Assembly (NCBI RefSeq): GCF_022811605.1 | Contig: NZ_CP094533.1 | Coordinates: 682,001 to 746,000 of the forward strand | Reading direction: 5' to 3' | Source: Agromyces soli | Lineage (GTDB): Bacteria > Actinomycetota > Actinomycetes > Actinomycetales > Microbacteriaceae | Length of the DNA: 64,000 bases | Shown: positions 1,797 to 63,535 of the stretch, piece by piece | How positions within the stretch are numbered: the first letter of the stretch is position 1 | Layout: each line of letters begins with the position of its first letter | Translations under genes and position numbers: made by a program | The notes under the pieces: model-generated | The model's database searches: none | Seen by the model: only the letters and a program-made list of their open reading frames with translations | What the model was told of the DNA's origin: nothing

Positions 1797-1832
1797 CGAG
1801 TTGCCCGACTTTCATGAAAGTCGGGCAACTCG
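1797..1832. repeat. Family A palindrome, copy 1 (probable terminator)
   Basis: A perfect 36-nt palindrome 14 nt after the GH1 stop: CGAGTTGCCCGAC, then TTTCATGAAA, then the complement. There is no T-tract. It is one of ten copies in the window and forms a tandem pair with copy 2. Confidence 0.9.
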
Positions 1833-1847
1833 GTCTGAGGCTCCGGC

Positions 1848-1875
1848 TTGCCCGACGTTCATGAAAGTCGGGCAA
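1848..1875. repeat. Family A palindrome, copy 2
   Basis: Second member of the tandem pair, 15 nt after copy 1. The core TTGCCCGAC-GTTCATGAAA-GTCGGGCAA has one G/A mismatch in the stem, so it is a slightly decayed copy. It lies just upstream of the LacI gene promoter. Confidence 0.9.
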
Positions 1876-1919
1876 CTCGGCGTCTGAAGCGGGGGGCGCG
1901 CGCGACCTAGACTTGCCGC

Positions 1920-2951
1920 ATGGCGAAGGATGCCGCGGGCGGAGCGCCCACCCTCGAGATGGTCGCACGACGTGCCGGGGTGTCGCGCGCGACCGTCAGC
2001 CGCGTCGTGAACGGTTCGCCGAAGGTGAGCCCCGAGGTCGTCACCGCCGTGAACGCGGCCGTCGCCGAGCTCCGCTACGTGCCGAATCGGGCGGCCCGTT
2101 CGCTGGCCCGCCGCTCCTCGAGCGCGATCGCGCTGATCGTGCCGGAGGACGTCACCGTCTTCTTCGGCGACCCCTACTTCGCGGCGGTCGTGCAGGGCAT
2201 CATGGACCGCATCGACGACAGCGAGTACGTGCTGAACCTGCTCGTGGCCTCGGCGGATCCGCAGCGCAAGACCCGCGGCTACCTCGAATCGGGCGTCGTC
2301 GACGGGGCGATCGTCATCTCGCACCACGCGGGCGACGAGCTGTTCGAGCACGCCGCGGTCCCCCTCGTGTACGGCGGCCGCCCGCCGGCGGGCATCGACG
2401 CGTACGTCGTCGACGTCGACAACGTCGAGGCCGCCGTGAGCGGCACCGAACGCCTGATCGAGATCGGCCGGCGCCGGATCGGCACGATCTCTGGCCCGCT
2501 CGACATGCCCGCCGGTATCGACCGGCTCGAGGGATTCCGCCGCGCGGTCGGGGCGGCCGGCCTGCCCGCCGACCTCGTCGAGACGGGCGACTTCACCGCC
2601 GAGGGCGCGGCCGCCGCGACCCGGCGACTGCTCGACCGGGTCGGCGACGGCCGCGACGGACGCCCGCTCGGCGTCGACGCCCTGTTCGTGGCGAGCGACC
2701 TGATGGCGACGGGCGCCCTCGCCGTGCTCGCCGAGCGCGGGCTCACCGCGCCGGCGGACATCGCGATCGTCGGCTTCGACGACAGCCCGGCGGCGCTGCG
2801 CGCCGGGGTGCCGCTGACCACGGTCGCCCAACCCTCGGCCGAGCAGGGCCGGCTGATGGCCGAGCTGCTCATCCGGCTGATCGAGGGCGACGAGACGGTG
2901 CCGCGGCAGACGATCCTGCCGACCCGCCTCGTGCTGCGCGACTCGGCGTAG
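1920..2951 (+). CDS. LacI-family transcriptional regulator (CebR-like)
   Basis: DNA-binding repressor of 343 residues. The N-terminal helix-turn-helix (about residues 11-35) reads LEMVARRAGVSRATVSRVVN, followed by the hinge with the YVPNRAARSLA motif and a periplasmic-binding-protein-like sugar domain that ends with VGFDDSPAA and TTVAQPS, as in the family. It most likely controls the GH1 gene through the GAGAGCGCTCTC operator. A TAGACT -10 box at 1908-1913 ends only 6 nt before the ATG and no Shine-Dalgarno sequence is present, so the mRNA is probably leaderless. The effector is inferred to be cellobiose or a related beta-glucoside. Confidence 0.92.
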   Translation: MAKDAAGGAPTLEMVARRAGVSRATVSRVVNGSPKVSPEVVTAVNAAVAELRYVPNRAARSLARRSSSAIALIVPEDVTVFFGDPYFAAVVQGIMDRIDDSEYVLNLLVASADPQRKTRGYLESGVVDGAIVISHHAGDELFEHAAVPLVYGGRPPAGIDAYVVDVDNVEAAVSGTERLIEIGRRRIGTISGPLDMPAGIDRLEGFRRAVGAAGLPADLVETGDFTAEGAAAATRRLLDRVGDGRDGRPLGVDALFVASDLMATGALAVLAERGLTAPADIAIVGFDDSPAALRAGVPLTTVAQPSAEQGRLMAELLIRLIEGDETVPRQTILPTRLVLRDSA

Positions 2952-2990
2952 CGGTCGAGACGGGCCGCTCGGGTACCGCCCGACCCCGTC

Positions 2991-3923
2991 TTAGCCGAGC
3001 GCGCGGAGCGAGCGCTCGATGAGCCCCCAGAAGCGGTCGACGTCGAGGTCGAGCGCGACGGTCGCGTTGTGCTCGCGGCCGAGGATGTCGATGAGATCCG
3101 TGCTCGTCGCGCCGCGGGTCTCGGTGCCGTCGAGTTCGACGTCGATGCGGGTGCGCACCGTGGTCGCGACCGCGGGGTCGGCGAGCAGCGCGACGGTGAT
3201 CGGGTCGTGCAGGGGGCCGTCGGGCATCCGCTCGGCACGCTCGTAGGTCGAGCAGAAGAACTCGAGCAGCTCCACGCCGAAGGTCGAGAGCGGCGTGCCG
3301 ATGGCCGAGAGGCGGTCGCGCACCTCGCGGGTGATGAGCGCCTGGTGCGAGATGTTCAGGCCGACCATGGTGAAGTCGATGCCGCTGTCGAGGGTGATCT
3401 TGATCGCCTCGGGGTCGGTCCAGGCGTTGAACTCGGCGTAGGGCGTGACGTTGCCGCGGGTCGTCGAGCCGCCCATCCAGACGATGCGGGAGATCCGCGG
3501 GGCGAGCTCGGCGTGGTCGCGCAGCAGCACGGCGACGTTGGTGAGGGGGCCGGTCGCGACGATCGTGACGGGCTCGGCGGAGGCCTCGAGCACGTCGCGC
3601 ATGAGCGTGATCGCGTCGCGCTCGTCGAGCGGCACGGTGGGCTCGGGCAGCACGGGGCCGCCGAGGGCGTTGTCGCCGTGGATCCAGTCGGCCGGGTGCA
3701 GCTCGCCCGCGAGCGGACCGGCGGCGCCGGCCGCGATCGGCACCCCTTCGATGCCGGCGACGGTGCAGGCGATGCGGGCGTTCAGCGTGGTGTGCTCGAG
3801 TCGGCCGTTGCCGCCGACGGTCGTGATCGCCCGGAGCTCGATCGCGGGGTCGCCCGCGGCGAGCCAGATGGCGAACACGTCGTCGTGGCCGGGGTCGCAG
3901 TCAAGGATGATGGGGGTGGTCAT
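2991..3923 (-). CDS. Inosine-uridine-preferring nucleoside hydrolase
   Basis: Cytoplasmic enzyme that hydrolyses the N-glycosidic bond of ribonucleosides to ribose and base, for nucleoside salvage. The calcium-binding signature DCDPGHDD is at residues 8-15; further family motifs are TGPLTNVAVLL and HDPITVALLADP. The length of 310 residues is typical. The ATG at 3923 was chosen because it places the DCDPGHDD motif at the usual position; the frame stays open for 59 residues upstream without family sequence. It is divergent from the LacI-type regulator at 4115 and has an operator 72 nt upstream of its start, shared with the BMP lipoprotein gene. Confidence 0.93.
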   Translation of the reverse strand: MTTPIILDCDPGHDDVFAIWLAAGDPAIELRAITTVGGNGRLEHTTLNARIACTVAGIEGVPIAAGAAGPLAGELHPADWIHGDNALGGPVLPEPTVPLDERDAITLMRDVLEASAEPVTIVATGPLTNVAVLLRDHAELAPRISRIVWMGGSTTRGNVTPYAEFNAWTDPEAIKITLDSGIDFTMVGLNISHQALITREVRDRLSAIGTPLSTFGVELLEFFCSTYERAERMPDGPLHDPITVALLADPAVATTVRTRIDVELDGTETRGATSTDLIDILGREHNATVALDLDVDRFWGLIERSLRALG

Positions 3924-3994
3924 GGCCGCTCCGGTGGTCTCGGGTGCAGGGCGCGGGATGCCGTCGCAGCATCCGCGCCAAGCTGCACAAGCTT

Positions 3995-4009
3995 TGCGTA
4001 ATCGATTGC
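3995..4009. promoter_or_regulatory. Operator shared with the BMP lipoprotein gene
   Basis: The minus strand reads GCAATCGATTACGCA, identical over all 15 bases to 6355-6369. The centre AATCGATT is typical of LacI-family half-site architecture. It lies in the divergent gap between the nucleoside hydrolase and its regulator, so it may serve both directions. Confidence 0.75.
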
Positions 4010-5152: not shown

Positions 5153-5189
5153 CGGATGCCGCGGGGCGCCTCGAGCCCCGCGGCATCCG
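5153..5189. terminator. Bidirectional GGATGCC-stem terminator
   Basis: Perfect 15-bp arms (CGGATGCCGCGGGGC and its complement) with a 7-nt loop, in the convergent gap between the LacI regulator and the BMP lipoprotein gene. There is no clear T-tract. The foot of the stem is the GGATGCC motif that recurs at 34696 and 35482. Confidence 0.8.
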
Positions 5190-5218
5190 CTGTTCCGGCT
5201 GAACCGGTTACGCCGCGC

Positions 5219-15745: not shown

Positions 15746-15798
15746 AAAACATACGCGCATCCCGGCCGTCGCGCCACCCCCGCGGGTACGCTGTGGAC

Positions 15799-16449
15799 AT
15801 GACGACGTTCTTCCTGGCTCGCCACGGCGAGACCGTCTGGCACGCCGAGCACCGCTACGCGGGCAACTCCGACGTCGCGCTCACCCGGCACGGGCTCGGC
15901 CAGGCCGCTGCCCTCGGCGCCTGGGCCGTCGACGCGAGGCTCGACGCGATCGTCGCCTCGCCGCTCAGCCGTGCGCGCCGCTCAGCCGCGCCATCCGTCG
16001 AGACGACCGGCCTCGAGCTGCGCATCGAGCCGCGGTTCGTCGAGGTCGACTTCGGCGTCGCCGAGGGGCTCACGCCCGACGAGCTCGCCGAGCGGTTCCC
16101 GGCCGAGTGGGCGGCATTCTGCCGCGCCCCCGCCTCGAATCCGTTCCCCGGCGGCGAGTCGGGGCGCGCCGGAATCGCGCGGGCGATGCCCGCGCTCGAC
16201 GAGCTCGTGCAGGAGTTCCCGGACGGGCGCGTGCTGATCGTCGCCCACGCGACGCTCATCCGGCTGCTGTTCTGCGAGCTGGCGGGCATGGATCCCGACG
16301 GCTACCGCGACCTGCTGCCGGTGCTCGGCAACTGCAACGTCACGACGATCGTCTACCCGTGGTCGATGGAGTCGAGCGCGAGGCATCCGAACCATCCCCG
16401 CATGCGCCTGCTCGGCTTCGACGTCCCGCCCGACCGCGCCGCCACCTGA
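15799..16449 (+). CDS. Histidine phosphatase (phosphoglycerate mutase-like)
   Basis: Phosphatase of 216 residues whose catalytic histidine lies in ARHGETVWH (residues 7-15). The second arginine region ASPLSRARRSA (about 54-64), an acidic residue in VEVDFGVAEG and the final VAHATLIRLL with its catalytic His complete the active site. The substrate could be a sugar phosphate or other small phosphoester; a fructose-bisphosphatase or cobalamin role cannot be assigned. A TACGCT -10 box at 15787-15792 ends 6 nt before the ATG, so it is probably leaderless. A family A palindrome begins 2 nt after the stop. Confidence 0.92.
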   Translation: MTTFFLARHGETVWHAEHRYAGNSDVALTRHGLGQAAALGAWAVDARLDAIVASPLSRARRSAAPSVETTGLELRIEPRFVEVDFGVAEGLTPDELAERFPAEWAAFCRAPASNPFPGGESGRAGIARAMPALDELVQEFPDGRVLIVAHATLIRLLFCELAGMDPDGYRDLLPVLGNCNVTTIVYPWSMESSARHPNHPRMRLLGFDVPPDRAAT

Positions 16450-16450: not shown

Positions 16451-16486
16451 CGACTTGCCCGACTTTCATGAAAGTCGGGCAAGTCG
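16451..16486. repeat. Family A palindrome, copy 3 (probable bidirectional terminator)
   Basis: A perfect 36-nt palindrome (CGACTTGCCCGAC, TTTCATGAAA, complement) only 2 nt after the phosphatase stop, in a convergent gap with the lipase gene. Confidence 0.9.
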
Positions 16487-16510: not shown

Positions 16511-17359
16511 TCAGTCGACGGCGAAGCGCTCGTCGAGCCAGGCGACGAGGTCGGCGCGCACCTCCTCGCGGTTCGTCTCGTTGAAGATCTCGTGCCGCGC
16601 GCCCGCGTACACGATGAGCTCCACGTCGACGAGGCCCGATCGGCGCACGTACGCCTCGGCGAGCCGGCGCGCGCTCTCCTCACCGCCGAGCGGATCGTCG
16701 TCGCCGACCATGATGAGCAGCGGCAGCTCCTTGGGCAGGTTCCGCGCGGGGCGACCGAGCAGGCGGGCAGCGTCGAGCAGGCCGAACAGCTTCTGCAGTG
16801 AGACGTCGGTCGTGTACGGGTCGGCCATGAAGGCCTCGGCGACGGCGCGGTCGCGGGAGAGCCACTCGACCGTCGTCGCGCCGAGGTGCGCGTGCCGCTT
16901 GTTCAGGTCGCCGCCGTTCATGTGCCGGAGCGTGCGGTAGGCGGTGCCGGTGAGCACGACGCCGTCGTAGCGCTCGGCGTGCCGGTTCACGATGATCTGG
17001 CCCATGAGCGAGCCCCAGGAGTGGCCGAGGTAGACGAGCGGCAGCTCGTAGCCCTCGGTCTCGCGGATCACCTCGGTGAACTGCTCGACCGCCGCGATCG
17101 TCGCGACGAGCCCGCCGGGCCCGAGCTTGCCCATCCGGGTGAGGTCGCCGCCGTGCTGCTCGAAGCCCGTCTTGCCGTGGCCGCGGTGATCGTCGGCCCA
17201 CACCGAGTAGCCGGCCGCGTTCAGCGCCGCGATGAGCTCGCCGTAGCGGCCGATGTGCTCGCCGACGCCGTGGGCGAGCTGGATCACCGCGTGGGCGTCG
17301 GGCACCCGCCACGACTCGTAGTGGATCCGGACGCCGTGCGAGTCGGTGAAGGTCGCCAT
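16511..17359 (-). CDS. Alpha/beta hydrolase, monoacylglycerol-lipase-like
   Basis: Serine hydrolase of 282 residues without a signal peptide. LAHGVGEHIGRYGELIAAL near residue 28-46 is the lid-strand motif of monoacylglycerol lipases, DDHRGHGKT follows, the nucleophile is in GHSWGS at about residue 111-116, the acid in GDDDPLGG (around 235) and the His in GARHEIFNE near the end. These show a complete triad. The likely role is hydrolysis of monoacylglycerols or lysophospholipids. It stands alone, convergent with the phosphatase gene. Confidence 0.92.
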   Translation of the reverse strand: MATFTDSHGVRIHYESWRVPDAHAVIQLAHGVGEHIGRYGELIAALNAAGYSVWADDHRGHGKTGFEQHGGDLTRMGKLGPGGLVATIAAVEQFTEVIRETEGYELPLVYLGHSWGSLMGQIIVNRHAERYDGVVLTGTAYRTLRHMNGGDLNKRHAHLGATTVEWLSRDRAVAEAFMADPYTTDVSLQKLFGLLDAARLLGRPARNLPKELPLLIMVGDDDPLGGEESARRLAEAYVRRSGLVDVELIVYAGARHEIFNETNREEVRADLVAWLDERFAVD

Positions 17360-23696: not shown

Positions 23697-24224
23697 TCAG
23701 CGCCGGCGGGTCGAGCCCGGGCCGTAGATGATGATGCCCGCGACCGGGATCAGCAGGAACCAGATCCACGACCAGGTGTAGCTGCCGTAGGTGCCGGACA
23801 GGAAGAACAGCGCAAGCGCGGCGAACGGCACGAGGGCCATGATCGTCGCGCCGACGGCGCCGCCGAGCGGGCGGATGCCGCGTCCGCCGTCGTAGCCGTC
23901 CCGATCGGCCGAGTCTCGCGAGCCGACATCGGGCTGCTGCGCGGCCTGCTGCTGCGCGGCCCGCTGCTGCGCGTACGGCCGTTCGCCGTAGCCGGCCGCG
24001 GCGGTCGCGGACCCCGGACCCGCCTCGCTCACGGGCAGATCGGCGAAGAGCGGCACGAGATCCGCCCGGGTCACGGCACGCCGAGCCGCCGCCGAGCGTT
24101 CGCCGTACTCGTCGGGGGTGAGGCGCCCGGCGAGCTGCGCCGCCGAGAGCCGGTCGACCGCGGCCTCCCGCTCGGCCGTGCTCAGTCGCTCCTCGGGCCG
24201 GTCTGGGTTCGCGTAGTCGGTCAC
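23697..24224 (-). CDS. DUF1707 membrane protein
   Basis: 175 residues. The DUF1707 domain, RLSTAEREAAVDRLSAAQLA then GRLTPDEYGERSAAARRAVT, covers residues 12-62 and ends with DLVPLFADLPV. A Gln/Ala-rich linker (QQRAAQQQAAQQ) leads to two membrane helices near the C-terminus. Such proteins are common actinobacterial membrane proteins, often transcriptionally near stress genes; function is unknown. The GTG at 24224 (VTDYANPDRPEER) was chosen as the family start. Repeat cluster B1 lies directly upstream, between this gene and the lipoprotein hydrolase. Confidence 0.85.
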   Translation of the reverse strand: MTDYANPDRPEERLSTAEREAAVDRLSAAQLAGRLTPDEYGERSAAARRAVTRADLVPLFADLPVSEAGPGSATAAAGYGERPYAQQRAAQQQAAQQPDVGSRDSADRDGYDGGRGIRPLGGAVGATIMALVPFAALALFFLSGTYGSYTWSWIWFLLIPVAGIIIYGPGSTRRR

Positions 24225-24280
24225 GGGGTCACTCTCGCGCACTGGACGCCGCACGTCGACCCCCTGGGCCGAATCCGCTG

Positions 24281-24542
24281 CACAACTCAGGAACACCCCA
24301 CCACAACTCAGGAACCCCGCGCGCACAACTCAGGAACACCCCGCCACAACTCAGGAATCTTCACCGCTGGCCCGGAGCCCGCCGGCTCGGACGCCCGGAT
24401 TCTCGGGAGAGGGGCGCTCCCCGAAGGCCGCGAGCGCCGAGTGTTTCCTGAATTGTGCGCCCGGGTTCCTGAGTTGTGCGCGGGCGAGCCGGGGCGGTTC
24501 CTGAGTTGTGCGCGGGCGAGCCGGGGCGGTTCCTGAGTTGTG
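24281..24542. repeat. Family B repeat cluster 1 (eight copies of CACAACTCAGGAA)
   Basis: Four + strand copies (24281, 24302, 24324, 24345; spaced 21-22 bp) face four inverted copies TTCCTGA(G/A)TTGTG (24445, 24466, 24498, 24530). The last two sit in a ~32-bp direct repeat. The inverted arms could form a large hairpin. The array ends 10 nt past the stop of the lipoprotein hydrolase gene. The gap 24225-24552 holds no gene. Confidence 0.9.
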
Positions 24543-24552
24543 CGCGGGCCGC

Positions 24553-26199
24553 TCAGCGGGTCCAGGTGCCGAGGCCGCTCGTGTCGTAGAAGTTGAGCGT
24601 CATCGTGGCGCCGGCAGAGCCGTCCGAGGCATCCGCTTCCGAGGCATCCGCGCTGCCGCCGCCGAAGCCGAACGCGGCCGAGGACCGCGACCCGGCCGGG
24701 GCGTTCTCGCCGTCCGGTTCGAAGGCGAAGACGTCGCCGTCCCAGGGTTCGAGCTCGAGCACGGTCGTGCCGCCGTTGCCGAGCCGCACCACGAGTCCGC
24801 CGCTCGCCTGGTCCACGGCGACCACGGCCTCGCCGTAGTAGGGGTTCTGCCAGGTGCCGGCGTAGTCGGTGAGCGGGCGCGAGGGCGCGGGATCGGCGGG
24901 TCGGCGCTCTCCCGCCAGATCCCCCGCCGGCTCGAAGTAGTGGCCGAGCGCCGCCCCGTACGCCTCGAGCCAGTCGCGCGTCGCCTCGCCGTACTGCACG
25001 CGGTCGAGGAACTCCGACACGATCGCCTCCGCCGCGCCGACGGGCGCGCCGTTCGTCAGCGCGACGACGCCGAGATCGAGCGCCGGCACCAGCTGGAAGT
25101 TGGTGCCCGCGCCGAGGATGAACGCGCCGGAATGCCCGAGCGTCACTCGTCCGCTCGGCTGCGTGCCCACGTTGAAGCCGTAGCCGTAGAAGCCGGCACG
25201 CGCGTCGGGCACGGGCGGCAGGCCGGTCGCGATCTCCGGGGCGATCGCCGGGGCGAGGGCGGATGGCGCGATCAGCTCCTCCCCCGCGAAGCTGCCGTCG
25301 TCGAGGACGAGCGACATCCACTTCGCCAGGTCGACGACGTTGGAGCTGACGCCGCCGGCCGGCGATTGGGCGTCGGGCGTGCGCTCGTAGAGCGGCGCGA
25401 ACTCGCCGTCGCCGGTCTTCGCGTGCAGCGTCGCCCGGTTGTCCCGGGCGAGGAAGTCCTCGTAGCGCGAGCTCGTCGAGTCCATGTGCAGTGGGCCGTA
25501 GAGCTCACGCTCGGACAGCGTCGCCCAGTCGACCCCCGCGGCGTTCGCCACGGCCTGCGCGCCGGTCGTCATGCCGAAGTTCGCGTAGTTGTAGCTGATG
25601 CGGAACGGCTGCAGCGGCTGGGAGCGCAGGTGGTCGAGGATGTACTCGCGGTCGTAGCCGAGGTCTTCGAGCTCGTCGCCGGCGGCCATCGGCAGGCCAG
25701 AGCGGTGCGCATACAGGTCGGCGACGGTGAGGTGCTCCGTGACCCAGGGGTCGGCGAGCGCGAAGCCCGGGAGCAGCGGCGCGACCGGCGTCGACCAGTC
25801 CACGACGCCGGCGGAGACCTGCGAGGCGACGACCGTCGCCCCGATGGGCTTCGACATCGACGCGATCTGGAACACGGTCTCCTCGTCGACCGCCGCGTCC
25901 TCGCCGAGCTTTCGGACGCCGAAGCCCTGCGCGAAGTGCAGCTCGCCGCCCTGCACGACGGCGACGGCGGCGCCCGGAACGCCGGATTCCTCGAGGATGC
26001 GTTCGACCTCCTCGGGCAGCTGTTCGAGGGCGGCGTCGAACGCGCCGTCGGCGAGCTCGACCGCGTCCTGCGGCGGCATCTCGCCGAGCGCCGCGCGGGG
26101 CGCGTAGGGCGGCGCCGTGGTGCACCCGGTCAGCGCGGTGAGGGTGCCGAGCGCGATGGCGAGCGTCACAGTCCTGCCGATGGATGCCTGTCGCCGCAT
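24553..26199 (-). CDS. Lipoprotein beta-lactamase-related serine hydrolase with C-terminal extra domain
   Basis: Surface-attached class C-type serine hydrolase of 548 residues. A lipoprotein signal ends at LTGC with Cys26. The catalytic SMSK tetrad (SxxK) is at 114-117, YAN at 205-207 is the YxN motif, and TLGHSGAFILGAG is the third conserved element. About 150 residues after this domain, a beta-rich tail (LTDYAGTWQNPYYGEAVVAV) resembles DUF3471. I chose ATG 26199 (MRRQAS) with GGGAGG upstream; the 22 extra codons before it are not signal-like. It is flanked on both sides by family B repeat clusters. Confidence 0.92.
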   Translation of the reverse strand: MRRQASIGRTVTLAIALGTLTALTGCTTAPPYAPRAALGEMPPQDAVELADGAFDAALEQLPEEVERILEESGVPGAAVAVVQGGELHFAQGFGVRKLGEDAAVDEETVFQIASMSKPIGATVVASQVSAGVVDWSTPVAPLLPGFALADPWVTEHLTVADLYAHRSGLPMAAGDELEDLGYDREYILDHLRSQPLQPFRISYNYANFGMTTGAQAVANAAGVDWATLSERELYGPLHMDSTSSRYEDFLARDNRATLHAKTGDGEFAPLYERTPDAQSPAGGVSSNVVDLAKWMSLVLDDGSFAGEELIAPSALAPAIAPEIATGLPPVPDARAGFYGYGFNVGTQPSGRVTLGHSGAFILGAGTNFQLVPALDLGVVALTNGAPVGAAEAIVSEFLDRVQYGEATRDWLEAYGAALGHYFEPAGDLAGERRPADPAPSRPLTDYAGTWQNPYYGEAVVAVDQASGGLVVRLGNGGTTVLELEPWDGDVFAFEPDGENAPAGSRSSAAFGFGGGSADASEADASDGSAGATMTLNFYDTSGLGTWTR

Positions 26200-26262: not shown

Positions 26263-26483
26263 CACGACTCAGGAATCCGGCGCCGCACGCCCGCTCCGCC
26301 CCCGGCACAACTCAGGAATCCGGCGCCGCACGCCCACTCCGCCCCCGCACACAACTCAGGAACCCCGCGGCGGAATCCGCGCGATTCCGGGGCGCGCCGA
26401 ACACCTCGGCAGCCATAACGGCCAGATGTTCCTGAGTTGTGTGCGGGGGATGGGGGCGAGCGGGGCGGGGCTCCTGAGTTGTG
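26263..26483. repeat. Family B repeat cluster 2 (five copies)
   Basis: Three + copies (26263 variant CACGACTCAGGAA, 26306, 26350) and two inverted copies (26429; 26471-26483). The spacing sequence CGGCGCCGCACGCCC is also repeated. G-rich runs (GGGGG-AT-GGGGG and later) follow. It fills the gap 26200-26501 between the lipoprotein gene start and the stop of the aldo/keto reductase gene, which it may terminate. Confidence 0.9.
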
Positions 26484-26501
26484 TGCGGGGGGCGGGGGCG
26501 G

Positions 26502-27494
26502 TCAGGCGGCGGGCGCGGATGCCTCGGCGAGCGCCGCGAGTTCGGCCGGCGTGAGCTCGAGCTCCGCGGAGGCGAGCAGGGCGGGCAGCTGCGCCGTGGT
26601 GCGGGCGCTCGCGATCGGCGCGGCGACGGTCGGCTGGCTGCGCAGCCAGGCGAGCGACACCGTGGCGACCTCGACCCCGTGCGCGGCGGCGATCTCGTCG
26701 AGGGCGGAGAGCACGGCCTGCCCGCGGGCGTCGAGGTACTCGGCGGCACCGCCTGCGCGGACGCTCGCACCGGGAGCCTCGACGTCGGCCGCATCGCGGT
26801 ACTTGCCGGCGAGGAAGCCCTTCGCGAGCGAGAAGTACGGCAGCACGGCGAGCCCCTCCCGCTCGGCGCGCTCGCGCAGCGCCCCCTCGAACTCGCGCTC
26901 GACGAGGTTGTAGTGCGGCTGCAGCGCGACGGCGCGGTGGAACCCGTTCTCGGCGGTCACGCGGAACCACTCGTCGATGCGCTCGGGCGTGTAGTTCGAG
27001 ATCGCGATGGCACGCACCTTGCCCGCGTCCACGAGTGCGGAGAGGGCGCCGACGGTCTCCTCGAGCGGCACGGACTCGTCGTCGAAGTGCGCGTAGTAGA
27101 GGTCGATCCGATCGGTGCCGAGTCGCGTCAGCGAGGCATCCGCCGCGGCCCGGATGTTCGCGGCCGAGAGCCCGGCGAACTCCGGGTGCGTGCTGACCTT
27201 GCTCGCGATGGCGAGCTCGTCGCGGTCGGAGCGGCCGGCGAGCCAGCGGCCGATGATCGCCTCGCTCTCGCCGCCGCGGTGCCCGGGGACCCAGTGCGAG
27301 TAGCCGTCGGCGGTGTCGAGCAGGGTGCCGCCGCCCGCGACGAAGGCGTCGAGCACCTCGAAGGAGCCGGCCTCGTCAGCCGTCCAGCCGAAGACGTTGC
27401 CGCCGAGCGCGAGCGGGAACGGGCGCACCCCGAGCGTCTCGGCGAGGCGGGAGAGGGCGGGGCTGGTGGCGGCGATGGCACTGGGTTCGGTCAT
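26502..27494 (-). CDS. Aldo/keto reductase
   Basis: NADPH-dependent carbonyl reductase of the (alpha/beta)8 fold, 330 residues. The catalytic Asp and Tyr are in DTADGYSHW near residues 60-70, IASKVSTHPEF follows, then RLGTDRIDLYYAHFDD, IAISNYTPERI, and VEREFEGALRERAEREGL near 210-230. It resembles the YajO/tas-like group. The ATG at 27494 follows the small gap to the NYN gene on the other strand. Substrate unknown; no operon partner. Confidence 0.93.
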   Translation of the reverse strand: MTEPSAIAATSPALSRLAETLGVRPFPLALGGNVFGWTADEAGSFEVLDAFVAGGGTLLDTADGYSHWVPGHRGGESEAIIGRWLAGRSDRDELAIASKVSTHPEFAGLSAANIRAAADASLTRLGTDRIDLYYAHFDDESVPLEETVGALSALVDAGKVRAIAISNYTPERIDEWFRVTAENGFHRAVALQPHYNLVEREFEGALRERAEREGLAVLPYFSLAKGFLAGKYRDAADVEAPGASVRAGGAAEYLDARGQAVLSALDEIAAAHGVEVATVSLAWLRSQPTVAAPIASARTTAQLPALLASAELELTPAELAALAEASAPAA

Positions 27495-28682: not shown

Positions 28683-28739
28683 GCGCCACTTCGTGCTCGT
28701 TGCGCCAGCAGAGGTGGCGCAACGAGCACGAAGTGGCGC
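28683..28739. terminator. Long perfect hairpin after the NYN gene
   Basis: Two perfectly complementary 25-nt arms (starting GCGCCACTTCGTGC) with a 7-nt loop GCAGAGG, directly upstream of the first LldR-type operator. It is unusually long for a simple terminator. No T-run follows. Confidence 0.8.
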
Positions 28740-32788: not shown

Positions 32789-32826
32789 CCGAGTTGCCCG
32801 ACTTTCATGAAAGTCGGGCAACTCGG
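32789..32826. repeat. Family A palindrome, copy 4
   Basis: A perfect 38-nt palindrome (CCGAGTTGCCCGAC, TTTCATGAAA, complement), extended by an outer stem CGCCCAC/GTGGGTG. It lies in a convergent gap between the TetR and VOC genes. Confidence 0.9.
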
Positions 32827-34695: not shown

Positions 34696-34731
34696 CGGAT
34701 GCCCCGGGGCCGATCGGCCCCGGGGCATCCG
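34696..34731. terminator. Perfect 36-nt GGATGCC palindrome
   Basis: Palindrome starting CGGATGCCCCGGGGCC in the convergent gap between the alcohol dehydrogenase and DUF4190-like genes. The stem foot GGATGCC/GGCATCC is shared with the hairpins at 5153 and 35482. Confidence 0.8.
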
Positions 34732-35481: not shown

Positions 35482-35532
35482 GCACGGCGGATGCCTCGGG
35501 CGGCCCGCGCCCGAGGCATCCGCCCGCCGTGC
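35482..35532. terminator. Long GGATGCC-stem terminator after GH3
   Basis: GCACGGCGGATGCCTCGGGCG pairs with the sequence ending GCCGTGC; a 4-nt bulge is in the second arm. It is 8 nt downstream of the GH3 stop (minus strand). Confidence 0.75.
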
Positions 35533-50208: not shown

Positions 50209-50236
50209 TTGCCCGACTTTCATGAAAGTCGGGCAA
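50209..50236. repeat. Family A palindrome, copy 5
   Basis: Perfect 28-nt core TTGCCCGAC-TTTCATGAAA-GTCGGGCAA; second member of a tandem pair downstream of the GH1 gene on the minus strand. Confidence 0.9.
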
Positions 50237-50255
50237 CCCTGAGGGGTAGGGAACT

Positions 50256-50291
50256 CGACTTGCCCGACTTTCATGAAAGTCGGGCAAGTCG
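50256..50291. repeat. Family A palindrome, copy 6
   Basis: Perfect 36-nt form (CGACTTGCCCGAC, TTTCATGAAA, complement), 23 nt after the stop of the minus-strand GH1 gene at 50315; nearest terminator of that operon. Confidence 0.9.
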
Positions 50292-50314
50292 AGGGGTCGA
50301 TGCTGGGCGTCGGG

Positions 50315-51478
50315 TCAGGCGAGGCGGCCGGTGCGGGCGACCTCGCCGAGCCAGGCCAGGCTCGGCTTGGGGCGCCGCTCGAAGGTCTCGCGGTCCCAGC
50401 CGATCAGGCCGAAGGTGGGCGCGAAGCTGCCCCACTCGTAGTTGTCGAGCGCCGACCAGTGCAGGTAGCCACGCACGTCGACGCCGTCGGCGAGGCATCC
50501 GGCGACCGCCTCGAGGGCGCCCCGCGTGTAGTCGATGCGGCGCGCGTCGTCGGCGGTCGCGATGCCGTTCTCCGTCACGTAGACGGGCACGCCGCTGCGC
50601 GCCCAGGCGTTGCGGATGCCGTCGCCGACCGCCGGCGGGTAGTACTCCCACCCCGTGAGGGTGCGCTCCGCGCCCTCGGCGATCGGCAGCGGCCCCTCCG
50701 GCCCGATCTTCGTGCGGGTGTACGCCTGCACGCCGACCCAGTCGTCCCCCGCGGCCGCGTCGAGGAACACGTCCTCGCGCGAGCGGCCGTAGTCGGCGGC
50801 CACCTGCTCCGCCCCGGGCTCGGGCTGGTACGCCTGCGTCGCGATCGTCCAGCCGGCCTTCGCGCCGACGCCGCGCACGAGCTCGACCGCACGGCGGTGC
50901 GCCGCGATGAGCCGCTCGGTCACCTCCGGCACCCCCGGCGGCAGTCCGATCGAGGGGAAGCCGACGGCAGGGTCGGCGAGCACCGACACCATGTTCGGCT
51001 CGTTGATCGTGCAGACGTGCGCGACGTCGTCGAGGATCGGCAGCGCCGCCTCCACGAAGCGGGCGAAGCGCTCGACCGAGGCATCCGTCAGCCAGCCGCC
51101 CTCGCGCGCGAACCAGATCGGGTTCGTGAAGTGGTGCAGCGTCACCGAGGGCTCGAGCCCGAGCGAGCGGGCCGTGTCGACCATGCGCCGGTAGTGGTCG
51201 AGCATGGCCCGCGAGACGAAGCCGCGCTCGGGCTCGATCCTGGCCCACTCGATGCTGAAGCGATACGTGTTCAGCCCGGCGTCGGCGAGCAGCGCCATGT
51301 CCTCCGGGTAGCGGTGGAAGCTGTCGGCGGCGTCGCCCGAGGGCTCGGCGACGGGCGGGCCGGGCAGGTGCCCGTGTTCGCGCTGCCACCAGTCCGAGTT
51401 CACGTTGTTGCCCTCCACCTGGTGGGCCGCGGTCGCGGCGCCCCAGAGGAAGCCGTCGGGGAAGGCGGGGTTCGTCAT
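50315..51478 (-). CDS. Family GH1 beta-glycosidase, short type
   Basis: 387 residues, at the short end for GH1. FLWGAATAAHQVEGNNVNSDW opens the fold, the acid/base Glu160 is in TINEP and nucleophile Glu303 in VTENG; YLHWSALDNYEWG follows. No signal peptide, so it cleaves a beta-glycoside oligosaccharide after import by the ABC transporter encoded upstream. It is the last gene of SBP-permease-permease-GH1, 47 nt after the second permease. Substrate could be a beta-glucoside such as sophorose or cellobiose. Confidence 0.93.
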   Translation of the reverse strand: MTNPAFPDGFLWGAATAAHQVEGNNVNSDWWQREHGHLPGPPVAEPSGDAADSFHRYPEDMALLADAGLNTYRFSIEWARIEPERGFVSRAMLDHYRRMVDTARSLGLEPSVTLHHFTNPIWFAREGGWLTDASVERFARFVEAALPILDDVAHVCTINEPNMVSVLADPAVGFPSIGLPPGVPEVTERLIAAHRRAVELVRGVGAKAGWTIATQAYQPEPGAEQVAADYGRSREDVFLDAAAGDDWVGVQAYTRTKIGPEGPLPIAEGAERTLTGWEYYPPAVGDGIRNAWARSGVPVYVTENGIATADDARRIDYTRGALEAVAGCLADGVDVRGYLHWSALDNYEWGSFAPTFGLIGWDRETFERRPKPSLAWLGEVARTGRLA

Positions 51479-55735: not shown

Positions 55736-57265
55736 ATGCGAACGAGACTGCGCGCCCTGCTCGGCGGGGTGCTCGCGCTCGCACTGCTCGCACCAGCCAC
55801 CGCCGCGAACGCCGGCGGGGGCCGCGGCGGCGAACGCGACACGCTGCTCCGCTACGCCGCCGACACCTGGACGTCCATGACGGCGATGACCGACGACGGC
55901 ACCGGACTCGTCGCCGACCACATCGACGGCGAGCTGAGCACCCCGAGCGGGTACACGAGCCCGACGAACATCGGCGGCTCGCTCTGGTCCACCGTCGTCG
56001 CCCGCGACCTGAAGCTCGTCTCCCGCACAGAGGCGCGCGAGCGGATGGCCCGCACGCTCGACACCCTCGCCGCCATGGAGCGGCACGAGCCGAGCGGCAT
56101 GTACTACAACTGGTACTCCCCCGCCGACGGCTCGAAGCTCACCAGCTGGCCGACGGACGGCAGCGCGGTGCATCCCTTCCTCTCGACCGTCGACAACGGC
56201 TGGCTCGCCGCCGCCCTGCGCGTCGTCGCCTCCGCGGAGCCGCGCCTCGCGAAGCAGGCCGACGCGCTCTACGCGAGCATGGACTTCGGCTGGTTCCACG
56301 ACCTCGAGGCCACCCCCGAGGCGGGCATCAACCGCGGCGGCTTCTGGGTCGAGCCGCCGCCCGGCTGCTCGGTGCCCGGCAACTACGGCGACGACGGCCC
56401 CGACGTGTACTACACCTGCCACTGGTACGACACGACCGTGAGCGAGGCCCGCATCGCGACGTACCTCGGCATCGCGAACGGGCAGATCCCGGCGGAGTCG
56501 TACTACGGCACGTTCCGCACGATGCCCGAGCGCGGCTGCGACTACGCCTGGCAGGAGCAGAAGCCGACGGGCGAGTGGCGCGAGTACCTCGGCGTGCCCG
56601 TCTACGAGGGCGTGTACGAGTACCGCGGCATGAAGCTCGTGCCGGCCTGGGGCGGCAGCATGTTCGAGGCGCTCATGCCCGACCTGTTCGTCCCGGAGGC
56701 CGAGTGGGGCGAGGACTCCTGGGCGGTGAACCACCAGGCGACCGTGCGCGCGCAGATCGAGCACGGCATGGACGAGGCCGGCTACGGCTACTGGGGCTTC
56801 TCGCCCAGCTCGGACCCGTTCGGCGAGTACCGCGAGTACGGCGTCGAGGCGATCGGCATCAGCGCCGACGGCTACGCGAGCGACGTCGAGCGCACCAATG
56901 TGGACGCCGGCTACGAGGGATGCCGCGAGGCCACGAACCCCGCGCCGGACTTCGGCGACGGGGTGGTCACGCCGCACGCGGTGTTCCTCGCACTGCCGTA
57001 CGCGAAGGACGAGGCGCTCGCCGACCTCGCCGGGCTGGAGCAGGAGCTCGGCGCCTACGGCCCCGGCGGCTTCTCCGACGCGGTCGCGGTCGGCAGCGGC
57101 ACGGTCGCGGAGCGGTACCTGAGCCTCGACCAGTCGATGATCATGGCCGCGATCGGCAACGATCTGCAGCGGGACCGGCTGAAGGACTACTTCGTGGACC
57201 GCGAGTTCGAGCGCGCCGTGCGCCCGCTCGTCGAGGCCCTGGAGTTCGGCTCCGAGCTGCGCTGA
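55736..57265 (+). CDS. Secreted glycoamylase-domain (GH144-like) glucanase candidate
   Basis: 509 residues with a signal peptide (RTRLRALLGGVLALALLAPATAANA, 26 residues with cleavage at ANA). The mature protein has the alpha/alpha-toroid glycoamylase/DUF3131-type pattern: DDGTGLVADHIDGE, TSPTNIG (74-80), STVDNGWLAA (150-159), YWGFSPSS (352-359), VVTPHAVFLALPYAKDEALADL and YLSLDQSMIMAAIGN. Such proteins include GH144 endo-beta-1,2-glucanases; activity here is inferred. GAAGGAG precedes ATG 55736. It should release oligosaccharides for the ABC transporter and GH1 upstream. Confidence 0.85.
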   Translation: MRTRLRALLGGVLALALLAPATAANAGGGRGGERDTLLRYAADTWTSMTAMTDDGTGLVADHIDGELSTPSGYTSPTNIGGSLWSTVVARDLKLVSRTEARERMARTLDTLAAMERHEPSGMYYNWYSPADGSKLTSWPTDGSAVHPFLSTVDNGWLAAALRVVASAEPRLAKQADALYASMDFGWFHDLEATPEAGINRGGFWVEPPPGCSVPGNYGDDGPDVYYTCHWYDTTVSEARIATYLGIANGQIPAESYYGTFRTMPERGCDYAWQEQKPTGEWREYLGVPVYEGVYEYRGMKLVPAWGGSMFEALMPDLFVPEAEWGEDSWAVNHQATVRAQIEHGMDEAGYGYWGFSPSSDPFGEYREYGVEAIGISADGYASDVERTNVDAGYEGCREATNPAPDFGDGVVTPHAVFLALPYAKDEALADLAGLEQELGAYGPGGFSDAVAVGSGTVAERYLSLDQSMIMAAIGNDLQRDRLKDYFVDREFERAVRPLVEALEFGSELR

Positions 57266-57282: not shown

Positions 57283-57320
57283 CCGAGTTGCCCGACTTTC
57301 ATGAAAGTCGGGCAACTCGG
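57283..57320. repeat. Family A palindrome, copy 7
   Basis: A perfect 38-nt form (CCGAGTTGCCCGAC, TTTCATGAAA, complement), 17 nt after the glucanase stop, in a convergent gap with the DUF1761 gene. Confidence 0.9.
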
Positions 57321-57340: not shown

Positions 57341-57772
57341 CTAGACCGTGCCGGCGGGCGGCCAGACGCCGATGATGAGCGCCATCACGAGCACCGTCAC
57401 GAGCTCGTGCGCGATGTTCATCGTGGTGAGCGCGGACGGCCGCCCCTCGAAGGCGTCGTGCGTGATGAAGCGCGCGGCCGTGAAGCCGGCCCAGAGCGCG
57501 CCCGCGGTCAGCAGCGCGCCGAGCAGGAAGTTGCCGCCGTAGAAGTGCCACGCGATCGCCGTCGCGCCCGCGAGCACCCACGCCGTGATGAAGCTCACGA
57601 GCACGGTCACGAGGATCGCGCCGACGGCGCTCGAGGCGGCCCCGTCGAGGTCGACCTTCGCGAGCTTCGCCCAGCGAGTGCCGAAGACCTTGGGCGTGTA
57701 CCAGATCGAGCCGACGACCATGCTCGACAGCGTGGCGAGGATGACGGCCCAGTAGTTGATCTCAGGGGTCAT
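57341..57772 (-). CDS. DUF1761 membrane protein
   Basis: 143 residues with about four helices. The start INYWAVILATLSSMVVGSIWYTPKVFGTRWAKL is the DUF1761 signature, followed by the remaining helices including GGNFLLGALLTAGALWAGFTA. Function unknown. GGAGACG precedes ATG 57772. The frame extends upstream without family sequence. It is divergent from the hypothetical membrane protein gene at 57884. Confidence 0.88.
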   Translation of the reverse strand: MTPEINYWAVILATLSSMVVGSIWYTPKVFGTRWAKLAKVDLDGAASSAVGAILVTVLVSFITAWVLAGATAIAWHFYGGNFLLGALLTAGALWAGFTAARFITHDAFEGRPSALTTMNIAHELVTVLVMALIIGVWPPAGTV

Positions 57773-59629: not shown

Positions 59630-59657
59630 TTGCCCGACGTTCATGAACGTCGGGCAA
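59630..59657. repeat. Family A palindrome, copy 8 (GTTC variant)
   Basis: Perfect 28-nt core TTGCCCGAC-GTTCATGAAC-GTCGGGCAA with an outer CCCCTC/GAGGGG stem, 19 nt after the APC permease stop on the minus strand. A single copy in a co-directional gap, the exception to the pairing rule. Confidence 0.9.
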
Positions 59658-59676: not shown

Positions 59677-61056
59677 CTACTCCTTCAGGTCGAGCATCGG
59701 CGTCGGCCGGCGGAAGCCGCGGGTCACGATCGCGAGGATGACGACGCCGAGCGCGAGCCACGACAGGCCGATGATGAAGGTGCGGCCCGAGAGGCTCGTC
59801 CACAGCCAGACCGTCAGCGCGAAGCCGATGAGCGGCAGCACGAGGTTGTTCAGCACGCCGAGGCCGGTGCGCTGCTTGCCGTCGAGGAAGTAGTGCTTCA
59901 CGACCGAGAGGTTCACCACCGAGAACGCGATGAGCGCGCCGAAGCTGATCATCTCGCTGAGCAGCGTCAGGTCGAACACGAGCGCGAGCAGCGAGACGGC
60001 CGAGACGATGAGGATCGCGACGACCGGCGTGCCGAATCGCTTGTTCAGGTGGCCGAACACCCGGCGCGGCAGCACCCCGTCACGGCCCATGGCGAAGAGG
60101 ATGCGCGCGACCGAGGCCTGCGAGGTCAGCGCCGATCCGGTGGCTCCGGCGACGTAGCCCGCGATGAACAGCGTCGACAGCCACTGCCCGCCCGCGGCGC
60201 CGACGACGTCGACGCCCGCGGCGTCCACCGAAGTGAAGTCGTTCGAGGGGAACACGAGTTGGGCTACGTAGGAGAGCAGCACGAACACGAGGCCCGCGCT
60301 GATCGTCGTGATCATGATCGCCCGGGGCACGGTGCGCTTCGAGTCCTTCGCCTCCTCGGCGAGCGTCGACACCGAGTCGAAGCCGAGGAAGGAGAGGCAC
60401 AGGATGGCGGCGCCCGCGAACAGCGCCCCGAAGCCGTCGACCGTGCCGTCGCCCTGGAACGGCAGCAGCGGGTCGACGCCGTTGCCGGCCGCGGTCGAGT
60501 AGCCGAGGGCGACGAACACGACGATGAAGATCGTCTGCACGGCGATGATGACGAAGTTCGCCCGGTTCACCGAGACGATGCCGACGACGTTCAGGATCGT
60601 CACGAGCGCGATCGCGGCGACCACGAAGACCCAGGCGGGGATGCCGGGGAACGACGCCGAGAGGTAGATGCCGAGCACCAGGTAGTTGATCATCGGCAGG
60701 AACAGGTAATCGAGCAGCAGCGCCCAGCCGGAGAGGAAGCCGACCGCGCCGCCGAAGCTCCGCTGCGTGTACACGTACGCCGATCCCGCATACGGGTAGG
60801 CGACCGACATTCTCGCGTAGGAGCGCGCCGTGAAGACCATCGCGACGAGCGTGATCAGGTAGGCGACGGGCACCCGGCCGCCGGTGACCTGCGTGACGAT
60901 GCCGTAGGTCGTGAACACGGTGAGCGGCACCATGTAGACGAGCCCGAAGAGCACGAGCGAAGGCACGCCGAGCACGCGCTTGAAGCGGCCCTCCGTGACT
61001 TGCGCGGTGGCGGTGGTCGCCGAGATCAGCGGATCGTGGGGCGAAGCCTGGGACAT
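59677..61056 (-). CDS. APC-family amino acid/polyamine-type permease, copy 2
   Basis: 459 residues, about 12 membrane helices. The segment ARMSVAYPYAGSAYVYTQRSFG after helix 2 is the APC hallmark, and FLGFDSVSTLAEEAKDSKRTVPRAI in the helix 6-7 region is the second conserved stretch. ATG 61056 follows AAAGGAAA. It is downstream of a YtcJ amidohydrolase (26 nt) and both belong to an operon whose TetR gene is divergent at 62820, the same content as at 9-13 kb but with the two structural genes in the opposite order. Confidence 0.93.
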   Translation of the reverse strand: MSQASPHDPLISATTATAQVTEGRFKRVLGVPSLVLFGLVYMVPLTVFTTYGIVTQVTGGRVPVAYLITLVAMVFTARSYARMSVAYPYAGSAYVYTQRSFGGAVGFLSGWALLLDYLFLPMINYLVLGIYLSASFPGIPAWVFVVAAIALVTILNVVGIVSVNRANFVIIAVQTIFIVVFVALGYSTAAGNGVDPLLPFQGDGTVDGFGALFAGAAILCLSFLGFDSVSTLAEEAKDSKRTVPRAIMITTISAGLVFVLLSYVAQLVFPSNDFTSVDAAGVDVVGAAGGQWLSTLFIAGYVAGATGSALTSQASVARILFAMGRDGVLPRRVFGHLNKRFGTPVVAILIVSAVSLLALVFDLTLLSEMISFGALIAFSVVNLSVVKHYFLDGKQRTGLGVLNNLVLPLIGFALTVWLWTSLSGRTFIIGLSWLALGVVILAIVTRGFRRPTPMLDLKE

Positions 61057-61082
61057 GGCCGGGTTTCCTTTCGTGGGCGGCG

Positions 61083-62714: not shown

Positions 62715-62732
62715 GCACCGTTGCTTTCACTC

Positions 62733-62764
62733 GAACGAACAGCGTTCATACGAACACTGTTCGT
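62733..62764. promoter_or_regulatory. Two TetR operator palindromes
   Basis: GAACGAACAGCGTTC (62733-62747) and the perfect ACGAACACTGTTCGT (62750-62764) lie side by side in the gap between the YtcJ operon and the TetR gene. The shared GAACG/CGTTC arms make them the likely binding sites for the regulator. Confidence 0.75.
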
Positions 62765-62819
62765 GTGGGTGTTGAGAGGCTACACTCTCGGCAGGGCTGA
62801 CGGAAGGGGGGATGCCGCG

Positions 62820-63437
62820 ATGGCCACCGTCAACCGCGAGCAGCTCGTCGTCGCCGCCCTCGCGATCGTCGACGAGCAGGGCAGCGAGGCGCTCACCATG
62901 CGCTCCCTCGCGGCCCGCGTGCACCGGCAGGTCTCCTCGCTCTACAACCACGTCGGCAGCCGCGACGAGCTGATCGAGCTCGTGCGCGCGCACATCGTGG
63001 TGGGCATCGACACGAGCCCCTTCGCCGACGAGCCCTGGGACGTCGCGCTCGAGGCGTGGGCCCGCTCCTACCTGCGGGTCTTCGCGGCGCACCCCAACCT
63101 CATCCGCATCCTTGCGACGACCCCCATCCGGGACGTCTCGACGTTCGAGATCTACGACGTGGTGATCGGCGCCCTGATCGAGGCCGGCTGGCCGATGCAC
63201 GACGCTGTCGCCGTGATGCGCACCGTCGAGGCGCACGTGCTCGGCTCCGCGCTCGACCTCGTGGCGCCGAGCGACATGCTCGACCAGTCCTCGGTGCCGG
63301 CCGAGCTCGCCCGTGTGCACGCCGCGCTCGACCCCGAGTACGAGGAGTCGACGAGCGCCGCCGCCGCGTTCGAGCTCGGCATCCGCGCCCTCCTCGACGG
63401 CCTCCGCGCCCGCCGCGCCACGGTCGCCCCCACCTGA
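62820..63437 (+). CDS. TetR-family regulator of the second APC/YtcJ operon
   Basis: 205 residues. The HTH at about 22-50 reads LTMRSLAARVHRQVSSLYNHV with REQLVVAALAIVDEQG before it. LYNHV in place of LYYYF and the C-terminal TetR_C-like segment with WARSYLRVFAAHPN resemble TetR/TetR_C repressors. GGAAGGGGGG precedes ATG 62820, with TACACT at 62781. It is divergent from the amidohydrolase operon and probably binds the two GAACG-type palindromes. Two family A palindromes follow. Confidence 0.92.
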   Translation: MATVNREQLVVAALAIVDEQGSEALTMRSLAARVHRQVSSLYNHVGSRDELIELVRAHIVVGIDTSPFADEPWDVALEAWARSYLRVFAAHPNLIRILATTPIRDVSTFEIYDVVIGALIEAGWPMHDAVAVMRTVEAHVLGSALDLVAPSDMLDQSSVPAELARVHAALDPEYEESTSAAAAFELGIRALLDGLRARRATVAPT

Positions 63438-63451
63438 CCTCCCCCATCTTC

Positions 63452-63489
63452 CCGACGTGCCCGACGTTCATGAACGTCGGGCACGTCGG
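63452..63489. repeat. Family A palindrome, copy 9 (GTTC variant)
   Basis: Perfect 38-nt form CCGACGTGCCCGAC, GTTCATGAAC, complement, 14 nt after the TetR stop. The outer arm differs from other copies, with compensating change, so the hairpin is kept. First of a tandem pair. Confidence 0.9.
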
Positions 63490-63503
63490 TTCGGTCGCAT
63501 GAG

Positions 63504-63535
63504 GGTTGCCCGACGTTCATGAAAGTCGGGCAACC
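63504..63535. repeat. Family A palindrome, copy 10
   Basis: GGTTGCCCGAC-GTTCATGAAA-GTCGGGCAACC with one mismatch in the core, 14 nt after copy 9. The pair lies between co-directional TetR and Lrp genes. Confidence 0.9.

What the first reader, a model, noticed from the sequence alone, without database searches (positions are those of the whole stretch)
1797..63535. Family A: ten sequence-conserved TCATGA-centred palindromes at gene ends
The core TTGCCCGAC-(T/G)TTCATGAA(A/C)-GTCGGGCAA occurs at 1797, 1848, 16451, 32789, 50209, 50256, 57283, 59630, 63452 and 63504. It is always intergenic; the copy nearest a gene end lies within 2-24 nt of a stop codon, and no copy is in a divergent gap. Ordinary terminators conserve structure, not sequence, and these lack a T-tract. 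Outer arms vary with compensation (GAGTTG/CAACTC, GACTTG/CAAGTC, GACGTG/CACGTC). The density is about one per 6 kb. This suggests a dedicated protein-bound terminator element or a domesticated palindromic repeat of the REP type.
Basis: partly seen in the sequence, partly recalled or inferred. Interest (0 to 1): 0.78.

Follow-up and report, generated by a model that had tools for sequence, protein, structure and literature searches.

The report
Lineage-specific palindromes at gene ends
A near-identical 28- to 36-base palindrome sits just behind the stop codons of dozens of genes in three closely related Agromyces species, and was not found in the other genomes searched; it probably acts as a copied, two-way transcription stop signal whose sequence is held more tightly than a simple RNA hairpin would need.

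Summary
In detail: ten copies at seven sites in the window, none in 100 shuffles. The genome carries 88 copies at one mismatch or less (95 at two); 3 of 60 Agromyces genomes carry the family. No other genome of a 398-genome family sample or a 394-genome class sample matched. Copies lie in the slot of ordinary, sequence-unrelated hairpins: about 17 nt after a stop codon, similar mix of gap types. 'Never divergent' is true in the window but not genome-wide (10 of 194 copies). At four window sites syntenic non-carriers lack the palindrome and any perfect stem above 6 bp, so it was gained in this lineage; sites are now mostly shared by the three species. Orthologous copies differ at 2.6-5.1% of core positions against about 21% in flanking non-coding DNA. 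Unlike in ordinary hairpins the loop is conserved too, and changes fall on three tolerant positions, which suggests recognition of sequence as well as structure. No RAYT transposase was found in 60 Agromyces genomes. Copies concentrate in the origin half of the chromosome; ordinary hairpins do not. Best reading: a REP-like palindrome without RAYT, spread in one lineage and kept as a bidirectional terminator, perhaps protein-bound. No RNA or binding data exist here.

The parts
1797..1832 (.). Family A palindrome, 36 nt (28-mer 1801-1828), first of a tandem pair; 14 nt after stop of gene 334-1782 (+), codirectional gap
   Evidence: absent in syntenic gap of non-carrier G430
1848..1875 (.). Family A palindrome, second of the pair, 47 nt from the first; G/A mismatch at the variable inner position
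16451..16486 (.). Family A palindrome, 36 nt, convergent gap between 15793-16449 (+) and 16511-17359 (-)
   Evidence: occupied in both other carrier species
32789..32826 (.). Family A palindrome, 38 nt, convergent gap between 32203-32775 (+) and 32856-33503 (-)
50209..50236 (.). Family A palindrome, 28 nt, distal member of a pair in a codirectional (-) gap
50254..50293 (.). Family A palindrome, 40 nt, 21 nt after the stop of gene 50315-51478 (-)
   Evidence: absent in syntenic gap of non-carrier G430
57283..57320 (.). Family A palindrome, 38 nt, convergent gap between 55769-57265 (+) and 57341-57772 (-)
59630..59657 (.). Family A palindrome, GTTCATGAAC variant, 19 nt after the stop of gene 59677-61056 (-)
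   Evidence: absent in syntenic gap of non-carrier G418
63452..63489 (.). Family A palindrome, 38 nt, GTTCATGAAC variant, 14 nt after the stop of gene 62820-63437 (+)
   Evidence: absent in syntenic gap of G418
63506..63533 (.). Family A palindrome, second member of the pair, 49 nt from the first

Best explanation
Family A is a dispersed palindromic repeat that spread in the ancestor of a small Agromyces lineage (A. mediolanus and close relatives), landed or survived mainly just behind stop codons, and is now kept there as a bidirectional hairpin 3' end: on either strand the transcript folds into a GC-rich hairpin of roughly 12-18 bp with a CAUG loop that should stop or stabilise the RNA. Shown: the repeat, its slot, its gain in this lineage, its constraint, its shared sites. 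Inferred: termination or 3'-end stabilisation; host selection as the cause of the constraint; recognition of the core sequence by an unidentified protein; how it was copied.
For: 95 copies at up to 2 mismatches in the own genome, reversed-pattern control 0; 3 of 60 genus genomes carry the arms (81, 38, 74 copies), 57 have none. Syntenic non-carrier gaps lack it at 4 of 4 window sites with a usable alignment, and no perfect stem above 6 bp stands there. Position is like that of ordinary hairpins: median 17 nt (159 copies) against 15 nt (48 hairpins) from the stop; convergent/codirectional/divergent 83/76/10 against 21/27/7, p = 0.15. Strong RNA folds, z about -6 to -9 for the six copy-holding stretches folded. 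Core differs at 21 of 812 positions (29 pairs) and 23 of 448 (16 pairs) between orthologs, against 310 of 1501 and 170 of 805 in flanking non-coding DNA. Outer arms covary. In convergent gaps copies co-occur with another strong hairpin less often (4 of 35 against 21 of 62, p = 0.017).
Against: No T-tract, and a paper title seen only in the reference list of PMC9695777 (Czyz et al. [quoted passage not shown] No preference for G-U over A-C on the transcribed strand in the core (8 against 10, counted), which an RNA-only function would predict. The loop is conserved more than an RNA hairpin needs. Copies occur in divergent gaps before start codons (10 of 194). Over all gap types co-occurrence with other hairpins is not significantly reduced (7 of 65 against 46 of 275, p = 0.26), and the convergent result is confounded by gap length. 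The cause of constraint (selection or homogenisation) is not settled. No mobilising enzyme was identified.
Confidence: 0.58

Rival explanations
1. Protein-bound DNA dyad: the 36-mer is primarily the binding site of a sequence-specific dimeric protein (chromosome organisation, or a roadblock that ends transcription); the hairpin is a by-product of the palindrome.
For: The centre (loop) is conserved: 3 of 180 loop positions differ between orthologs against 6 of 63 in ordinary hairpins (p = 0.011; few ordinary hairpins, 10 and 3). 38 of 44 core differences fall on 3 of 14 dyad positions. No G-U preference on the transcribed strand. Copies cluster in the origin half: 48 of 56 sites, KS p = 3e-9, replichores 30:26, while ordinary hairpins do not (30 of 151 against 27 of 88 slots). 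The one terminus-proximal 20 kb stretch tested is collinear in both other carriers at 93% or more.
Against: Covariation of the outer arm (148 of 180 complementary) is not expected of independent half-sites. Placement behind stop codons is like that of ordinary hairpins. A new protein with about 90 sites limited to three species is demanding. G000 and G426 hold only one ParB-domain match, so no Noc-like ParB paralogue there; other protein families were not searched.
Confidence: 0.22
2. Selfish or neutral dispersed repeat: a MITE-like palindrome with no host role; copies survive only where harmless, and near-identity is kept by ongoing copying or gene conversion.
For: Lineage-specific expansion; copy number at a site varies 1-3 among species, usually with spacers of 17-23 nt; non-consensus variants are almost never shared by orthologs (1 identical of 26 single-copy pairs with a non-consensus member).
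Against: Core differences between orthologs fall on three positions instead of evenly; orthologous copies persist at shared sites; no extra half-sites in held carrier DNA; no Y1 transposase; no copy in viral contigs; in plasmids only one weak partial match, E = 4.
Confidence: 0.15
3. Ordinary terminators that converged on one sequence at old gene-end hairpins (no dispersal).
For: Ordinary hairpins occupy the same slot and their stems are about equally conserved between orthologs.
Against: A 24-mer core exact at 65 places cannot converge by chance; the four syntenic non-carrier gaps examined show no perfect stem above 6 bp; no other genus genome has the 9-nt arms around any 4-14 nt.
Confidence: 0.03

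Closest known systems
REP/BIME elements (RAYT-associated palindromes; recalled)
   Same: Short intergenic palindromes, many copies, mostly at gene 3' ends, sometimes in clusters of two or three, lineage-specific
   Different: Near-perfect dyad with no asymmetric head; no Y1 transposase found in 60 genomes; about 95 copies; outer arms differ from site to site
Intrinsic terminators of high-GC Gram-positives (hairpin without U-tract; recalled)
   Same: Position after stop, strong GC-rich hairpin, similar gap classes to ordinary Agromyces hairpins
   Different: One sequence in about 90 places; conserved loop
Paired DNA-uptake-sequence terminators of Haemophilus/Neisseria/Pasteurella (PMC2267715, abstract and section 15 read)
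   Same: Sequence-conserved terminator-like hairpins built from a repeated word
   Different: No single unpaired half-sites in held carrier DNA
TRIT terminator family of M. tuberculosis (named in a passage of PMC3526491; the rest recalled)
   Same: A recurrent terminator family in an actinobacterium
   Different: Sequences not compared; the source paper is not held; no Rfam match in the window
Noc/SlmA binding sites (about 70 palindromic NBSs, absent from the terminus; PMC4331003, passages read)
   Same: Similar number, palindromic, depleted near the terminus
   Different: Placed behind stop codons; one ParB match only in G000; limited to three species

Membership tests
REP element with RAYT | RAYT (Y1_Tnp, PF01797) in the genome | tested here: not met
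   0 of 60 Agromyces genomes at E <= 0.001, own genome included; control rings in 5 of 14 named genomes
REP element with RAYT | Short palindrome, intergenic, many copies | tested here: met
   95 copies at up to 2 mismatches; of 194 held copies 8 were called 'inside' and 4 'overlap'; the two loci inspected, L135 and L037, are caller errors, the rest were not inspected
REP element with RAYT | Conserved 5' tetranucleotide head (GTAG/GGAG, recalled) | tested here: not met
   Position profile outside the 28-mer shows symmetric GA(S)/(S)TC arms and no asymmetric head
Canonical intrinsic terminator | Stable GC-rich hairpin after the stop | tested here: met
Canonical intrinsic terminator | U-tract after the hairpin | tested here: not met
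   tails; only a mild T excess (0.4-0.5) about 8 positions after the 28-mer
Intrinsic terminator (function) | RNA 3' ends at the site | not testable with these tools
   needs Term-seq
MITE / IS remnant | Terminal inverted repeats shared with a transposon and target-site duplication | tested here: inconclusive
   no extra half-sites in held carrier DNA; empty sites too diverged to read a duplication
DNA-uptake-sequence terminator | The half-site also occurs singly, in genes | tested here: not met
   0 extra half-sites at up to 1 mismatch in the carrier stretches held at that call
Noc binding site | ParB paralogue (Noc) beside ParB | tested here: not met
   one PF02195 match in G000 (near dnaA) and one in G426; four in G427, only one of them strong
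Noc/SlmA binding site | Depletion near the terminus | tested here: met
   8 of 56 sites in the terminus half, KS p = 3e-9; terminus position inferred as opposite dnaA

The most novel reading that the evidence does not exclude
The palindrome is a two-in-one element: a copied bidirectional terminator that is also the recognition site of an unidentified DNA-binding protein, spread over the origin-side half of the chromosome, so that gene ends in one Agromyces lineage double as anchor points for chromosome organisation or division control, a role so far described for Noc and SlmA sites elsewhere.
Probability: 0.15. Interest if true: 0.78.

Novelty: new variant of a known kind. Interest (0 to 1): 0.47.

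Why it matters
It is a natural case where one terminator-like sequence was copied to dozens of gene ends within one lineage, while the sister species sampled have unrelated hairpins at gene ends and none at the four matching places examined, with carriers and nearest non-carriers about 85% identical in the genes compared. That allows direct tests of how a sequence-identical terminator set arises without a RAYT, whether a hairpin without a U-tract stops transcription in a high-GC actinobacterium, and whether sequence-specific recognition is involved.

Tried and rejected
RAYT-driven REP: rejected, 0 of 60 genomes. Phage or plasmid origin: 0 stretches in viral contigs; in plasmids one 23-nt partial match in Ruegeria inside a gene, E = 4; the phages collection was not searched. 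Half-site or transposon-end origin: 0 extra half-sites in held carrier DNA. Known RNA family: 0 Rfam matches at gathering score in the window. Chance origin of single hits in relatives: of 8 genus genomes with one GACNTTCATGAANGTC each, the 6 inspected were inside genes. RNA test by G-U versus A-C in codirectional copies: no signal (26:17 over stem and arms, p = 0.22; 8:10 in the core, p = 0.81). Terminus depletion by gene turnover: weakened, because the one 20 kb stretch tested at the inferred terminus is collinear in both carriers. Terminus depletion by lack of slots: not supported. Noc-like ParB paralogue: not found in G000. tRNA neighbours of divergent copies: none in the 12 loci scanned, 10 of them with divergent copies. 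The direct-repeat listing of the window showed no longer shared unit around the palindrome (20 largest families only). Paper searches: searches listed nothing on this palindrome and (REP, Actinobacteria, RAYT) held 0 papers; only listings were read. A lead not followed: one search lists PMC4057263 (start of abstract seen), where an integrative element of Streptomyces uses the 8-bp palindrome TTCATGAA at a gene 3' end as its integration site; the same 8 letters form the centre of Family A, and nothing else was compared.
Full report
OBSERVATION. The ten copies are real and far beyond chance: 10 matches to the 28-mer at up to 3 mismatches, 9 exact, 0 in 100 shuffles. None is divergent. The nearest arm of each site lies 1-21 nt from a stop codon and no T-tract follows.

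GENOME. The window is 682001-746000 of a 3,810,275-base single contig. That genome holds 95 copies of the inner 24-mer at up to two mismatches (88 at one; 65 exact by my count of the listing), with 0 for the reversed pattern. dnaA lies at 981781, so the origin is near 0.98 Mb and the terminus is inferred near 2.89 Mb. The 65 exact copies form 56 sites; 48 lie in the origin half and 8 in the terminus half (KS D = 0.41, p = 3e-9), 30 on one replichore and 26 on the other. Few lie within the first tenth of the way from origin to terminus (3 of 56).

PHYLOGENETIC RANGE. In 398 genomes of the family and 394 of the class only the own genome matches at one mismatch or less (these samples did not include the two other carriers). 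In 60 Agromyces genomes the arms TTGCCCGAC...GTCGGGCAA with 4-14 nt between them occur only in three: G000 (81), G426 (38) and G427 (74); 57 have none. The looser GACNTTCATGAANGTC gave 8 further genomes one hit each; the 6 inspected are inside genes. G426 and G427 fit these two by the spacing of copies (inference). Held orthologous DNA is about 93% identical between G000 and JCM and 90% between G000 and RA (matches over 800 nt). JCM has runs of N beside several copies, so its count is a minimum.

GAIN. Syntenic stretches of near non-carriers (82-89% identical in the best matches) were fetched. At the four window sites where both flanks aligned across a short gap (1797 and 50205 in G430, 59625 and 63452 in G418) the palindrome is absent, and the longest perfect stem there is 5-6 bp. 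Two other alignments (16451 in G430, 50205 in G418) span extra DNA and were not used; the remaining window sites gave no two-flank match. So at these sites the family was gained, not derived by drift of old hairpins. Within the three carriers most sites with mapped flanks are shared: of 30 G000 sites mapped to JCM loci 29 hold at least one copy, and 40 of 40 mapped to RA loci do (72 G000 sites in all). This is biased upward, because JCM and RA loci were fetched through their copies. Copy number at a site differs (1, 2 or 3), and 25 of 31 distinct tandem spacers (three species, orthologs included) give 45-51 nt steps with mostly unrelated spacer sequence.

SLOT. Of 194 distinct copies in held stretches of the three carriers (orthologs included), 84 are convergent, 77 codirectional, 10 divergent, 8 called inside genes, 4 overlapping gene calls and 11 undetermined at locus edges. 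Inspection of L135 and L037 showed their inside calls to be caller errors; the three in L040 look like the counterpart of L135, and L081 and the 4 overlaps were not inspected. Divergent copies are real. Ordinary, sequence-unrelated hairpins (stem 10 or more) in 604 kb of G000 have a mix that does not differ significantly (27 codirectional, 21 convergent, 7 divergent; p = 0.15) and a like distance to the stop (median 15 nt, against 17 nt for Family A), but no origin bias (30 against 151 slots in the origin half, 27 against 88 in the terminus half; p = 0.06 in the opposite direction). Of those stretches 300 kb were chosen away from listed copies, 240 kb at round numbers, and 64 kb is the window. 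Two non-carriers sampled at 200 kb each also carry sequence-unrelated hairpins at gene ends and no Family A. So Family A occupies the terminator slot, but its chromosomal spread is its own.

CONSTRAINT. Between single-copy orthologs the 28-mer differs at 21 of 812 positions (29 G000-RA pairs) and 23 of 448 (16 G000-JCM pairs), against 310 of 1501 and 170 of 805 in neighbouring non-coding positions. Multi-copy and N-holding pairs were dropped, and the two comparisons share G000 sites. Stems of ordinary hairpins are conserved to a like degree (12 of 262 over 10 RA pairs, 1 of 79 over 3 JCM pairs), so that alone is ordinary. The centre is not: the four middle bases of Family A differ at 1 of 116 and 2 of 64 positions, while loops of ordinary hairpins differ at 6 of 49 and 0 of 14, p = 0.011 pooled. 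That contrast rests on few ordinary hairpins, and their flanks came out less diverged (55 of 472 and 21 of 126) than those of Family A, partly because the alignments were made differently. Of 44 core differences 38 fall on dyad positions 2, 4 and 13 out of 14. Nine changes are two-sided (eight of them T-A to or from G-C at position 4) and 26 one-sided. Among codirectional copies one-sided changes in the core give G-U on the transcript 8 times and A-C 10 times (counted), no sign of RNA-only selection. The outermost arm covaries strongly (148 of 180 complementary), which speaks for pairing, or for hairpin-templated correction.

MECHANISM. Folded as RNA, single copies form a hairpin of about 16-17 bp with a CAUG loop (z about -6 to -8), and the 50209/50254 pair folds as one long hairpin (z -8.9). 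In convergent gaps copies are found with another strong hairpin less often (4 of 35 against 21 of 62, p = 0.017), but over all gaps the difference is not significant (7 of 65 against 46 of 275) and gap length is a confounder. I therefore take a bidirectional terminator or 3'-end stabiliser as most likely, with protein recognition of the core as a serious second reading. How the element was copied is unknown: no Y1 transposase in the genus sample, no stray half-sites, no viral copy.

COMPARISON. It resembles REP elements in form and place but fails the RAYT test. It resembles terminators in place but lacks a U-tract. Among repeated stem-loop families, paired uptake sequences thought to act as terminators are the nearest that I read of (PMC2267715, abstract and section 15). 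About 70 Noc sites absent from the terminus are described for B. subtilis (PMC4331003, passages read); the likeness here is in number and spread only, and G000 has a single ParB match. The requirement of mycobacterial polymerase for a U-tract is known to me from a title in the reference list of PMC9695777.

On re-reading the calls I corrected the number of window sites from eight to seven, the RNA stem length, the identity range of non-carriers and the wording on divergent copies, and measured the hairpins in the empty sites.

Noticed in passing
window 5153-5189, 34696-34731, 35486-35524: A second recurrent gene-end hairpin type with CGGATGCC/GGCATCCG arms and variable inside; also elsewhere in G000 (e.g. 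L204:413) and in the non-carrier G400 (L178:1586), so not limited to the carriers. GGATGC or GCATCC occurs in 12 of 57 ordinary G000 hairpins.
   Followed up: partly
window 24273-24343, 24464-24559, 26342-26369, 26430-26500: Repeated 13-mer CACAACTCAGGAA / TTCCTGAGTTGTG in tandem and inverted clusters around genes 23697-24242, 24553-26169 and 26502-27494.
   Followed up: no
window 28683-28739: Perfect 25-bp inverted repeat with a 7-nt loop in a codirectional gap, about 57 nt after a stop.
   Followed up: no
L016:1501, L109:1502, L124:12623 and other divergent copies: Ten Family A copies in divergent gaps (about five sites by reading), 8 of them 25-37 nt from a start codon; by reading, some of the genes look like regulators. 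They could act as attenuators or operators.
   Followed up: partly
L060, L085, L037, L145 (JCM 3346): Runs of N abut several palindromes, perhaps assembly gaps or masking at hairpins, so copy numbers from such genomes are minima.
   Followed up: no
L135:1505-1624 and L040:5571-5690: Three tandem copies at exactly 48-nt steps, in frame with an open reading frame that lacks a stop across them.
   Followed up: partly
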